DNA of 42,260 bases from contig WQYX01000030.1 in the NCBI GenBank assembly GCA_009781005.1, positions 1 to 42,260 on the forward strand, given 5' to 3'. Both the position numbers and the translations under genes were made by a program. Source of the DNA: Polyangiaceae bacterium (lineage in GTDB: Bacteria; Myxococcota_A; Polyangia; Polyangiales; Polyangiaceae). The notes under the pieces were generated by a model that saw only the letters and a program-made list of their open reading frames with translations, had not been told where the DNA came from and made no database searches. How positions within the stretch are numbered: position 1 is the first letter of the stretch; each line of letters opens with the position of its first letter. Positions 24,860 to 30,069 of this stretch are shown here, one piece after another.

Positions 24860-27610
24860 CTAACTTGATAAGCGCAGACCGATCGGCAGCCCCTCGCCGA
24901 GGATCGCGATGCGCTCGTCTTCACCGACCTCGACGAGCTCGCGCACGGCCCGAATCCACGCGGGCTTGCTGTGGATCGCAACGAGCTTCTTCTCGACCTC
25001 CTTGCGGTGTCTCTCCGAGACGTCGCGCGCTCGGTCGCCTGTCACGCGCGCGAGTTGCACCGCGGCGTGCGGTGCCGTCGAGACGGCATCCCACTTGAGC
25101 CGCAAGATCCGGTCGAGCCACGCTTCCGCGTTCTTCGCCGGCACCACGTGATGCACGCTTGCGTAAAGGGGCACGCGCGCGCCGATACGACCGAGATCCG
25201 ACCAGAGCCGCGGATCGCCGGACGACCACGTGCGCTCGACGACCCATTCGCCCAGCACGACTCGCCGCGCGACCGGGACGCGCTCGAACGAAGCCAGCGT
25301 CGTGAGCAGTTCATCGGGCATCTCCGGCATGCGTTTCGGCTTCTTCAGCCCCGCGTCCGCGGGCGCGATCACGGCGTCCATCGCGTCGCGAAATGCAGTC
25401 TGCATCGATTCCGTCATCCCGCCCGCGATGCGCCGCCACGCGATGAAGAAGTGCTGCCAACCGCGTGCCTCGCCGGGAAACGCGAGCCTGCTTTCGAAGA
25501 GGGGCCACGCGCGCGCGACACGCGCGACATCGCCGGGATCGCCGACGCCCGGACGCATGCAGTAGCCGAGCAAGAGCCAGTAATTGCGCTCGTGCGGAGC
25601 GCTCCTCCGCCGCGCACCCGGGTTGTCGAGAAGGCGGTCGGCCAAATCGCGTGCAGTCTGCATGGTCCACGACGCGCGATCGCCAAGGACCTTCTCGAGA
25701 TCGCGCACGACATCTTTCACCTCGCGCGGATCGGCCTCGCCTTTTCGACCGAAGACGCGCTCGATGGTTCTGTCGACCTCGGCTCGCTTGACCGTCGATC
25801 CCGCTTTCGCGCTCTGTGGAGTCATGGACGGCGGCGGCGACGCACCTGCCGTGCGCGCGCCTTCGCGGAGCGAAAACTCGAGACGGTGACTTCGCGTTGG
25901 GACATCTTCGCTGCCCGTGATCTCCGTGCATGCGAGCGCAAGCTGCCCCGTCGCAAGGAGCTCGCCACCGAGATGCACGGGCACGATCTCGGCGTTGCTC
26001 GTCTTCGGGATCCGTGCGACGACCGCGGGCAACCGTTCGAAGCTCTCCTCGTCGATCGTCACGAGCGCGCCCGCTTCGTCGCGCGCGACATCCGACGCGA
26101 ACATGTCGAAGCGCACGCTGCGCCCAACGACGAGCTCGAAACGGCGGCCTGCTTCGTAGTGGACCCCCTCCTTCGCACCACGCGGCAATATGCATACTGC
26201 ACGCATTTGGGGCGAGCCCGAATCGTCGGAGGCAACGGCCACGTAGCAGCCATGCGAGGCTCCGCTCTCCACGCGGTAGACCATCCCCCGCCGCGCGAGG
26301 CCGTAGCGGACGGCGCCGCGAGCAACCGCCAGATCCGGATCGCGGTTGGCGAGCATCGCGGGCGGCTTGCCACCGCCCCATGCGGTCATCGCATCGAGCA
26401 GTGCACGGACGATGGGCGTCGCATGAAAGACACCACCGTTCAGGAGCACGGCATCGGGCACACCGTTCGGCAGCGACGCTGCGTGCCGCAAGAGAAACTG
26501 GCGCACGTGGCGCGTGATCTCGGGATCGCGCTCGTACGGCAATCCGAACGCAACGATGCCACCGCGCGCGCGTGGGGGTTGGGCGTCGCCGGAGACCATT
26601 GGAAAGAAACCGCCGAGCAAGAGCTCGAAGACTTCCTCCTTCGTGAGCGTCGTCGTGCGCGCACCACCAACGAGCCTGCCTCCGCGCCCCAAGACCGTGA
26701 CCTTGGCTGCACTCGCTGCGCCAGAGAAAATTCGTTCCTTCGCCTCGCGACACGACGCAACGAGCGCTGCGAGATCGGCCGGCTCGAGGCAACCATTAGG
26801 TTGCACCATACGCGCTTCGGCAAAGTGCGCGAGCGCGAGATCCATGTTGTCGCCGCCGAGAAGAATGTGCCGCCCGACCGCCACGCGCCGCACGGTGAAG
26901 CCGTCGTCGTCCTCGTCGCCCGTGGAAGGCGCCACGGACATGAGCGAGAGATCGGTCGTGCCTCCACCAACGTCGCACACGAGCACGGTGCGCTCGCCGT
27001 GACGCGCGAGTTTCAACACGGCGCGCTTGTCCTCGAGCGCATCGTAAAATGCGGCCGTGGGCTCCTCGAGCAGCGCTGGCTCGAGCCCGACGTTCTCGGC
27101 CGCTTTCAGCGTCAAGACGCGCGCGACTTCATCGAACGACGCCGGCAGCGTGAGCACCACGTCCTGATCCGCAAGCTTCGCCGTTGGGTGCGCCGCATCC
27201 CATGCATCACGGACGTGCGCGAGGATGCGTGCGCTTGCATCCACGGGCGAGATGCGCGGCGAGCCTTCGTCGTGCGAGGCTCCCCATGGAAGGATCGCGG
27301 CGAGCCTGTCGACGGCAGCGTGCGAAAGCCAGCTCTTGGCCGACGAGACATAGCGCGCGGTGATTTCGCTGCCGCGCCGGCGCGCAAACTCACCGACGAC
27401 CCAATCCGGATCGCCCGGGATCTCGGATGGAAGCGGCGCGTAAAGCGAGGATGCCAGAAGCGGCCGCGCCTCCATGACGCGCGCGGCGGTGAGCTGAGGC
27501 ACCTCGAAGATCTTTGGTCGCGGCGGAGTTGCGCGCGCGACGAGCTCCGAGAACGCCACCACCGTGTGCGTGGTTCCGAGATCGATGCCGACGATGAACT
27601 GCGCACCCAT
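24860..27610 (-). CDS. Large Hsp70-family protein with C-terminal DUF3731-like region
   Basis: 916 residues. The first ~400 form an Hsp70 nucleotide-binding domain: 'FIVGIDLGTTHTVVAF' (phosphate 1), 'VVLTLPASFDEVARVLTLKAA', 'LLEEPTAAFYDAL', 'VLVCDVGGGTTDLSLM' (phosphate 2) and 'LLNGGVFHATPIVRALLDAM' (adenosine). Then a short beta segment, and from about 580 a long helical, arginine-rich region (VFGRKGEADPREVKDVVRDL..., 'WLLLGYCMRPGVGDPGD', 'WQHFFIAWRRIAGG') in place of the DnaK peptide-binding domain. This fits the Hsp70-DUF3731 type. It probably hydrolyses ATP, but its client is unknown and the J-protein partner is not evident. It follows the smaller Hsp70 after 33 bases and belongs to a three-gene cassette. 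Confidence 0.88.
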   Translation of the reverse strand: MGAQFIVGIDLGTTHTVVAFSELVARATPPRPKIFEVPQLTAARVMEARPLLASSLYAPLPSEIPGDPDWVVGEFARRRGSEITARYVSSAKSWLSHAAVDRLAAILPWGASHDEGSPRISPVDASARILAHVRDAWDAAHPTAKLADQDVVLTLPASFDEVARVLTLKAAENVGLEPALLEEPTAAFYDALEDKRAVLKLARHGERTVLVCDVGGGTTDLSLMSVAPSTGDEDDDGFTVRRVAVGRHILLGGDNMDLALAHFAEARMVQPNGCLEPADLAALVASCREAKERIFSGAASAAKVTVLGRGGRLVGGARTTTLTKEEVFELLLGGFFPMVSGDAQPPRARGGIVAFGLPYERDPEITRHVRQFLLRHAASLPNGVPDAVLLNGGVFHATPIVRALLDAMTAWGGGKPPAMLANRDPDLAVARGAVRYGLARRGMVYRVESGASHGCYVAVASDDSGSPQMRAVCILPRGAKEGVHYEAGRRFELVVGRSVRFDMFASDVARDEAGALVTIDEESFERLPAVVARIPKTSNAEIVPVHLGGELLATGQLALACTEITGSEDVPTRSHRLEFSLREGARTAGASPPPSMTPQSAKAGSTVKRAEVDRTIERVFGRKGEADPREVKDVVRDLEKVLGDRASWTMQTARDLADRLLDNPGARRRSAPHERNYWLLLGYCMRPGVGDPGDVARVARAWPLFESRLAFPGEARGWQHFFIAWRRIAGGMTESMQTAFRDAMDAVIAPADAGLKKPKRMPEMPDELLTTLASFERVPVARRVVLGEWVVERTWSSGDPRLWSDLGRIGARVPLYASVHHVVPAKNAEAWLDRILRLKWDAVSTAPHAAVQLARVTGDRARDVSERHRKEVEKKLVAIHSKPAWIRAVRELVEVGEDERIAILGEGLPIGLRLSS

Positions 27611-27643
27611 TCGGAGGGTGTTTACCAGCCGCCGCGAGCGACG

Positions 27644-29482: not shown

Positions 29483-30069
29483 AGCTCCACCTCGGCCTGG
29501 GCAACGATGCGTGCGTCGTGCTCGCCAACAGCCGTGGGCAGCGAGATTGCGGTGACCTTCCAACCGCGATGCTGAAGCGTGCCCGTGTACGGCGCCGTGC
29601 CCTGCACGTTGCCAGTGAGCTTCACTTCCTCCGCGTTGAACCCCGGAGGCAAGGTGACACGAGCACCTTCCTGTTCCGCGCGTACAGCTTCGAAGGTCAC
29701 GTGAGCGCGCAATGCTTTGCGACAGCCCGCATGCACGATGCGCGCTGCAGCTCCGATGTCAGAATCAGCGAAGCTCGCGACGTCTTCTTCGAGGAAATCG
29801 ATGAGCCGGCCTTCGCGCTGGAGCAATGCGAGAAGTTGGAGGGCCGCGTCGATCGGCGGTGCGGCCGGCGCGATAGGCGCGGACTGCACGGTAACGACAG
29901 GCGCCGGTTCGGGCGCGGCCTCGGGGAGCACACGCTCCTTTTCATGCGCCGGCGGGAGCTGCTTGATGTCGTAGACGTCACGCGCGTAAACGCCGTTGAA
30001 CAGGACGCGGAAGAAGCAGATCCACGCAAACCAGAGCCTCGTCAGAAAGGACAGCGGAGGGGAAGGCAC
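29479..30069 (-). CDS. DUF2760 protein
   Basis: 196 residues from a GTG at 30069, where the family's amphipathic/hydrophobic start lies (FLTRLWFAWICFFRVLFNGV, residues 8-27). An Ala/Pro-rich linker (about 48-72) leads to a domain of helices and strands (LQLLALLQREGRLIDFLEED, 'VHAGCRKAL', 'GTLQHRGWKV') typical of DUF2760. Its stop overlaps the start of the following Hsp70 gene, so the two are translationally coupled; in other proteobacteria DUF2760 genes also sit directly before this Hsp70 pair (recalled context). Inference: a dedicated, possibly membrane-attached cofactor or client adaptor for the two Hsp70 proteins. Its biochemical activity is not established as far as I know. Confidence 0.82.
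   Translation of the reverse strand: MPSPPLSFLTRLWFAWICFFRVLFNGVYARDVYDIKQLPPAHEKERVLPEAAPEPAPVVTVQSAPIAPAAPPIDAALQLLALLQREGRLIDFLEEDVASFADSDIGAAARIVHAGCRKALRAHVTFEAVRAEQEGARVTLPPGFNAEEVKLTGNVQGTAPYTGTLQHRGWKVTAISLPTAVGEHDARIVAQAEVEL

What the first reader, a model, noticed from the sequence alone, without database searches (positions are those of the whole stretch)
24860..30069. DUF2760-Hsp70-Hsp70(DUF3731-like) cassette: a little-described chaperone system
Three genes, translationally coupled or closely spaced, encode a small DUF2760 protein, an Hsp70 with a short beta-rich C-terminus but no lid, and a 916-residue Hsp70 whose C-terminal half is a helical domain instead of a peptide-binding domain. 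This is separate from the grpE-dnaK locus in the same window. Similar trios are recalled in other proteobacteria, but I know of no established function. One hypothesis is a two-ATPase machine with DUF2760 as membrane adaptor.
Basis: partly seen in the sequence, partly recalled or inferred. Interest (0 to 1): 0.62.

Follow-up and report, generated by a model that had tools for sequence, protein, structure and literature searches.

The report
Paired Hsp70 machine with solenoid arm
Three neighbouring genes encode a widespread but unstudied bacterial chaperone unit, two linked ATP-driven Hsp70-type proteins (one with a long curved arm) and a small partner, that are inherited together even when their genes lie apart, so they very probably work as one machine separate from the standard DnaK chaperone.

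Summary
The three genes are real and lie where stated: DUF2760, a lidless Hsp70 (HspA, 612 aa) and a 916-aa Hsp70 (HspB). In 140 Myxococcota genomes, 22 carry DUF2760 and the same 22 carry DUF3731-HspB. In 249 Pseudomonadota genomes DUF2760 and HspA occur in the same 19 and HspB in 18 of them. Genomes where HspB has moved away still keep it (10 of 10 checked). DUF2760 and HspA stay adjacent (79/80), usually overlapping by 4 bases. One structural claim needs correcting: HspB keeps a peptide-binding beta-sandwich, and the lid is what is replaced, by a HEAT/armadillo-like solenoid. Both ATPase sites are invariant, but residues that take J-domain signals in DnaK are changed. The orthologue MXAN_5323 (identified here by length and elimination) has a published deletion phenotype: fewer spores and poorer peroxide survival, no heat phenotype, and no rescue of E. 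coli dnaK. Best model: a self-contained, probably DnaJ/GrpE-independent Hsp70 pair with DUF2760 as HspA's dedicated co-factor. A solenoid acting as built-in exchange factor, as in HspBP1, is attractive but unproven. Novelty: a new variant of a known kind; no held paper describes the trio.

The parts
29479..30069 (-). DUF2760 gene (PF10816), 196 aa, GTG start
   Evidence: 75-sequence alignment; model pLDDT 89
29962..30048 (-). DUF2760 residues 8-36: two hydrophobic, mildly basic N-terminal helices, followed by a proline-rich linker
29482..29850 (-). DUF2760 conserved core, residues 74-196 (helices plus two small beta hairpins)
   Evidence: 66% mean pairwise identity
29482..29502 (-). DUF2760 C-terminal tail AQAEVEL (family: APAEVEL/APAQVEL at or one residue from the C-terminus)
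29479..29482 (-). GTGA overlap: DUF2760 stop and HspA start, indicating translational coupling
   Evidence: same 4-base overlap in 61 of 79 loci
27644..29482 (-). HspA gene, lidless Hsp70, 612 aa, GTG start
28088..29482 (-). HspA nucleotide-binding domain (about residues 1-465), catalytic residues intact
27647..28087 (-). HspA SBD-beta-like region (residues 466-612); protein ends here, no lid
   Evidence: by homology to the HspB model
24860..27610 (-). HspB gene, Hsp70 with DUF3731, 916 aa, ATG start, 33 nt after HspA
26291..27610 (-). HspB nucleotide-binding domain (about residues 1-440), catalytic residues intact
25877..26251 (-). HspB SBD-beta-like beta-sandwich (residues 454-578)
24926..25810 (-). 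HspB C-terminal HEAT/ARM-like alpha-solenoid (residues 601-895), containing Pfam DUF3731 (670-914)

Best explanation
The trio encodes one self-contained Hsp70 machine distinct from DnaK/HscA/HscC. HspA and HspB are anciently duplicated Hsp70 paralogues, both with intact ATPase sites and a beta-sandwich substrate domain. HspA has lost the lid; in HspB a roughly 295-residue HEAT/ARM solenoid stands in its place. DUF2760 is the obligate co-factor of HspA, made by coupled translation. A variable proline-rich linker lets it reach out, and its conserved C-terminal tail (APAEVEL) probably docks on HspA. The unit probably runs without DnaJ and GrpE: DUF2760 would trigger or deliver substrate to HspA, and the HspB solenoid would clasp HspA and help exchange nucleotide, much as HspBP1/Fes1 or Hsp110 do for eukaryotic Hsp70. 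It helps cells recover from oxidative damage and during dormancy rather than from heat. Shown here: gene structure, co-inheritance, ATPase residues, domain folds by prediction, changed J-domain contact sites. Inferred: that the three proteins bind each other, J/GrpE independence, the exchange role, tail docking.
For: Strict co-occurrence: Myxococcota 22 DUF2760 and the same 22 plus one low-completeness genome with HspB. Pseudomonadota: 19 DUF2760 and HspA in the same 19 genomes, HspB in 18, the 19th having its DUF2760-HspA at a contig end. All 10 genomes checked with HspB not immediately downstream of, or missing from, the DUF2760-HspA locus still have it. DUF2760-HspA adjacent in 79/80 loci, HspB within 120 nt of HspA in 64/80. 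DnaK residues D8, T11, K70, E171, D194, G196-198, T199 and D201 are invariant in 79 HspA and 69 HspB; N170 is E, T173 mostly Q, Q378 Y/F, and the linker LLLD is lost, residues through which J-domains act on DnaK (PMC7289447, PMC8215388). HspB fold. HspB forms one clade across phyla and HspA divergence mirrors HspB (r 0.96), so the duplication is old. Phenotype: deletion of MXAN_5323, a 925-aa Hsp70, lowers sporulation and H2O2 survival, leaves heat/cold/osmotic growth unchanged and does not replace E. coli dnaK (PMC8265645). Myxococcus eversor HspB is also 925 aa and the only Hsp70 there longer than about 640 aa past its signature.
Against: No interaction was tested. HEAT/ARM solenoids are generic binding scaffolds and HspBP1 itself was not among the listed matches. 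R167, a key J-domain contact, is kept in 51 of 69 HspB, so HspB might still answer a J-protein. In M. xanthus the other accessory Hsp70 mutants show similar sporulation and peroxide defects, so the phenotype is not specific. High r values between trees largely reflect common descent. The tail-docking idea rests on conservation alone.
Confidence: 0.4

Rival explanations
1. Dedicated client chaperone: HspA-HspB-DUF2760 work together, but the HspB solenoid binds a specific client or cell structure rather than acting as exchange factor for HspA.
For: Solenoids are commonly protein-binding surfaces; the solenoid holds 18 invariant columns of 304, mostly charged, G, P or W; low-copy accessory Hsp70s such as HscA serve few clients (PMC8215388).
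Against: No client gene recurs beside the trio across taxa (crude survey); scattered distribution over varied lifestyles.
Confidence: 0.3
2. Membrane-tethered machine: DUF2760 anchors HspA/HspB at the inner membrane through its N-terminal amphipathic helices and the unit acts on membrane or envelope proteins.
For: N-terminal 18-residue window mean hydrophobicity 0.90, moment 0.39, net charge about +1 in 81 sequences; modelled as helices 8-24 and 26-36; membrane-anchored partners exist for HscC.
Against: Only 15 of 81 reach a Kyte-Doolittle value of 1.6, so not a clear transmembrane segment; such helices also pack against proteins.
Confidence: 0.2
3. Phage-defence or mobile stress cassette.
For: Only a weak, partial match of both Hsp70s to one PADLOC candidate model, in the shared NBD.
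Against: No DUF2760 relative in viral contigs, no HspB-like full match in phages, few plasmids, mostly chromid-sized; single copy, co-inherited parts.
Confidence: 0.03
4. Operon of convenience: the proteins are unrelated in function and merely co-transcribed.
For: Several genomes have HspB elsewhere.
Against: Those same genomes keep HspB (10/10); near-perfect three-way presence/absence in 389 genomes.
Confidence: 0.03

Closest known systems
MXAN_5323 of Myxococcus xanthus (925-aa cd10170 Hsp70; PMC8265645)
   Same: Almost certainly the HspB orthologue: identical length to Myxococcus eversor HspB, which is the only long Hsp70 in that genome.
   Different: Studied as a stray Hsp70; its partners HspA and DUF2760 and its solenoid were not described.
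'Hsp70 family protein' WP_004524146 of Burkholderia pseudomallei (PMC7085900)
   Same: Published qPCR primers encode GEHILL and, at the right spacing, xxxAVP, which is the HspA motif of Burkholderia; 65 kDa like HspA.
   Different: Only shown to be present in wild type and absent in a dehydrogenase mutant; no function assigned.
DnaK, HscA and HscC systems
   Same: Hsp70 nucleotide-binding domain with all catalytic residues; SBD-beta.
   Different: No helical lid, no LLLD linker, changed J-domain contacts; partner is DUF2760, no adjacent J-protein or GrpE seen; own deep branch in the tree.
Eukaryotic Hsp70-Hsp110 pair
   Same: Two diverged Hsp70 paralogues that go together, one enlarged C-terminally.
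   Different: HspB has a HEAT/ARM solenoid, not a three-helix-bundle lid with insertions; no sequence kinship beyond the NBD tested.
HspBP1/Fes1/Sil1 armadillo exchange factors (PMC4753570)
   Same: ARM-type solenoid of similar size (about 260 vs about 295 residues) acting in an Hsp70 context.
   Different: Eukaryotic stand-alone proteins; here the solenoid is fused to an Hsp70; exchange activity untested; homology not shown.

Membership tests
Hsp70 superfamily (PF00012) | Hsp70 NBD with DLGTT, K70, E171, DxGGGT signatures | tested here: met
   HspA E 1.2e-13, HspB E 8.7e-14; residues invariant; profile match 99.7%
DnaK/HscA/HscC type Hsp70 | conserved hydrophobic interdomain linker (LLLD) and J-domain contacts R167, N170, T173, Q378, D393 | tested here: not met
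   linker replaced (RGGT in HspA), N170E, T173Q, Q378Y/F, D393 lost; R167 kept only in 51/69 HspB
DnaK/HscA/HscC type Hsp70 | helical lid (SBD-alpha) | tested here: not met
   HspA ends after SBD-beta; HspB has a solenoid there
DnaK/HscA/HscC type Hsp70 | SBD-beta sandwich | tested here: met
   HspB model matches DnaK SBDs, E 5.6e-4, probability 1.0; HspA by homology
DUF2760 (PF10816) | Pfam model above cut-off | tested here: met
   171.6 bits vs 25
DUF3731 'DNA-K related protein' (PF12531) | Pfam model above cut-off | tested here: met
   247.3 bits vs 25
HspBP1/Fes1 armadillo NEF | HEAT/ARM solenoid | tested here: met
   VIA Z 15.2, rmsd 4.5 A over 273 residues to importin beta; many designed ARM proteins Z 13-14
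HspBP1/Fes1 armadillo NEF | specific similarity to HspBP1/Sil1 | tested here: inconclusive
   not among the 50 listed rows
HspBP1/Fes1 armadillo NEF | binds NBD subdomain IIB and speeds ADP release | not testable with these tools
   needs biochemistry
Hsp110 | Hsp70-like NBD + beta-sandwich + three-helix bundle, acts as NEF of a partner Hsp70 | tested here: inconclusive
   first two parts resemble, third replaced by a solenoid; NEF activity untested
Anti-phage defence system (PADLOC) | match of all parts to a defence model | tested here: not met
   only a weak NBD match of the two Hsp70s to PDC-M61B, none for DUF2760

The most novel reading that the evidence does not exclude
A fourth kind of bacterial Hsp70 system that dispenses with DnaJ and GrpE: DUF2760 replaces the J-protein, and HspB, an Hsp70 fused to an armadillo-like arm, is the built-in nucleotide exchange factor of HspA, a bacterial parallel to the Hsp70-Hsp110/HspBP1 arrangement thought to be confined to eukaryotes.
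Probability: 0.25. Interest if true: 0.8.

Novelty: new variant of a known kind. Interest (0 to 1): 0.56.

Why it matters
Reviews count three bacterial Hsp70 types (DnaK, HscA, HscC) and a single bacterial exchange factor, GrpE (PMC8215388, PMC4753570). A co-inherited pair of Hsp70s with its own small co-factor, present in several hundred species across Myxococcota and Pseudomonadota, would add a further type. It turns scattered observations (MXAN_5323, the Burkholderia Hsp70) into one testable system for oxidative-stress recovery and dormancy, and asks how an Hsp70 works with no lid, no classic linker and an ARM-like arm.

Tried and rejected
Heat-shock sigma-32 boxes upstream of DUF2760: high-scoring sites in 8 of 80 loci vs about 1.4 expected, scattered positions, inconclusive. 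Recurrent neighbours: no gene recurs across distant taxa; shared ones follow close kinship, and the ORF calls in high-GC DNA are noisy. PDB sequence search with DUF2760 and with HspB 440-916: no relative; an earlier HspB query had wrong coordinates and failed. DUF2760 fold search: best Foldseek E 1.4, VIA Z below 5, so no known fold recognised by these searches. Phage and viral origin rejected. First NBD tree included a mis-framed row and long branches and was rebuilt; the root between HspA, HspB and canonical Hsp70s remains unsure because the outgroup branch is very long. C-terminal tail conservation could be biased because the genome scan used it as a pattern, so it was rechecked in loci found by HMM only and held. 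Complex prediction of the trio was not available.

Full report
What is there. On the minus strand three genes follow each other: DUF2760 (30069..29479, 196 aa), HspA (29482..27644, 612 aa) and HspB (27610..24860, 916 aa). Pfam places DUF2760 firmly in PF10816, gives both Hsp70s a weak but real PF00012 match in the nucleotide-binding domain, and places the last 245 residues of HspB in PF12531/DUF3731. The DUF2760 stop and HspA start overlap as GTGA. NCBIfam has no model that fits any of the three above its cut-off. A normal grpE-dnaK pair is elsewhere in the window, and the genome has several further Hsp70s.

Co-conservation. In an even sample of 140 Myxococcota genomes, DUF2760 occurs in 22 and DUF3731 in the same 22 plus one low-completeness genome with a short contig. 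In 249 Pseudomonadota, DUF2760 and HspA occur in the same 19 and DUF3731 in 18 of those; the missing one lies at a contig end. Presence is patchy within orders and families, so the parts are gained or lost together. Fisher p values are about 1e-24 and 2e-26 without correction for kinship. A scan of GTDB genomes gave 463 relatives, of which the 80 best were kept. In these, HspA lies next to DUF2760 in 79 (61 of them by a 4-base overlap), and HspB starts within 120 nt of HspA in 64. In 8 more HspB is farther downstream, in 2 it is upstream and divergent, and in 6 it is out of range. Ten genomes of these atypical kinds were searched whole and each has exactly one DUF3731 HspB. The bond between DUF2760 and HspA is thus physical and near-absolute; the bond with HspB is functional and survives separation.

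Anatomy of the Hsp70s. Against E. coli DnaK, the catalytic residues D8, T11, K70, E171, D194, the GGGT loop and D201 are invariant in 79 HspA and 69 HspB. Both should be active ATPases. The region through which J-domains act on DnaK differs: N170 to E, T173 to Q in nearly all, Q378 to Y/F, and the LLLD linker gives way to an invariant RIRGGT-like segment in HspA and to variable residues in HspB (roles of these residues from PMC7289447 and PMC8215388). R167 is lost in HspA but kept in most HspB, so J-independence is more likely for HspA than for HspB. The AlphaFold2 model of HspB residues 440-916 has mean pLDDT 88.6: ten strands, a disordered linker, then some seventeen helices. Foldseek's best matches to the sandwich are DnaK substrate-binding domains (E 5.6e-4, probability 1.0). 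The helical part aligns with HEAT/ARM proteins (importin beta Z 15.2, 4.5 A, 273 residues; designed armadillo proteins Z 13-14). Such Z values can arise from a common solenoid arrangement, so this is a fold class, not kinship. HspA aligns with HspB through its last residue at about 35-47% identity and ends there: it is HspB without the arm.

DUF2760. The model (pLDDT 89) has two N-terminal helices, a poorly conserved proline-rich linker, a helical and beta-hairpin core and an extended C-terminal tail. No fold match was found. The N-terminal helices are very hydrophobic with a slight positive charge but rarely long enough to be transmembrane. The tail reads APAEVEL or AQAEVEL at or one residue from the C-terminus in nearly all of the scanned set, and APAEVEL/APAQVEL or close variants in an independent HMM-found set. 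A conserved, extended C-terminus is typical of a docking peptide; that it docks into the HspA sandwich is my inference.

Evolution. HspB forms one clade with full support that contains Myxococcota, beta- and gamma-proteobacteria. HspA has the same spread, and their distance matrices agree (r 0.96), so the duplication precedes the split of these groups. The unit is absent from viral contigs and phages and rare on plasmids.

What is known. No held paper mentions DUF2760 or DUF3731. Two papers nevertheless touch the system. Pan et al. 2021 (PMC8265645) deleted MXAN_5323, a 925-aa Hsp70 of M. xanthus, and saw reduced sporulation, slower recovery and lower survival after H2O2, induction by H2O2, no effect on growth in heat, cold or osmotic stress, and no rescue of an E. 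coli dnaK mutant. Myxococcus eversor HspB is 925 aa and is the only one of its Hsp70s longer than about 630 residues past the signature motif, so MXAN_5323 is almost certainly HspB. A B. pseudomallei proteome paper (PMC7085900) reports a 65-kDa Hsp70 lost in a dehydrogenase mutant. Its printed primers encode GEHILL and, at the spacing set by the 176-bp product, a stretch equivalent to TTDAVP, the HspA motif. HspA is therefore expressed and regulated.

Mechanism. I take it as very likely (about 0.9) that the three proteins act together, likely (about 0.6) that HspA does not use DnaJ/GrpE, and possible (about 0.25-0.3) that the HspB arm is an exchange factor for HspA. The last follows the logic that HspBP1-type exchange factors are armadillo solenoids wrapping Hsp70 subdomain IIB and Hsp110 is an Hsp70 paralogue doing the same job (PMC4753570). 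The alternative that the arm binds a client or a cell structure is equally open. The biological role supported by data is recovery from oxidative damage and dormancy, not heat shock.

Verdict. A real, widespread, unnamed Hsp70 machine.

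Noticed in passing
window 30100-30400, minus strand: Just upstream of DUF2760 is a decayed copy of the tail of the neighbouring DUF5122 (delta-60 repeat) gene at 30826-32166: fragments SRFMDDGARDTSFGTDGRT and KDGRIIVLSWTHPGGHWVVSRLWN* in different frames.
   Followed up: partly
window 30430-30540, minus strand: Fragment DRIIYVADSWNNKIRKITPVWQ* resembles the end of an NHL-repeat protein, a second gene remnant.
   Followed up: no
L055, L081, L084, L105: Methylococcales, including a reduced deep-sea snail endosymbiont (2.9 Mb), keep the system but with HspB at a distant locus.
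   Followed up: partly
window 23682-24836, plus strand: A calcineurin-like metallophosphoesterase ends 24 nt from the HspB stop, convergent; no sign of functional association was seen.
   Followed up: no
window 34658-36004, minus strand: Protein combining a trypsin-like protease domain with a weak C-terminal CAP-domain match.
   Followed up: no
L132-L138 (Pseudomonadota, probably alphaproteobacteria): A diverged branch of the system with DUF2760 ending in APAQVELK and a more distant DUF3731 (E about 1e-45).
   Followed up: partly
own genome G000:C2 118664-120892 (L005, L006): Another unusual Hsp70 in a 754-aa open frame whose PF00012 match is split by an insertion.
   Followed up: no
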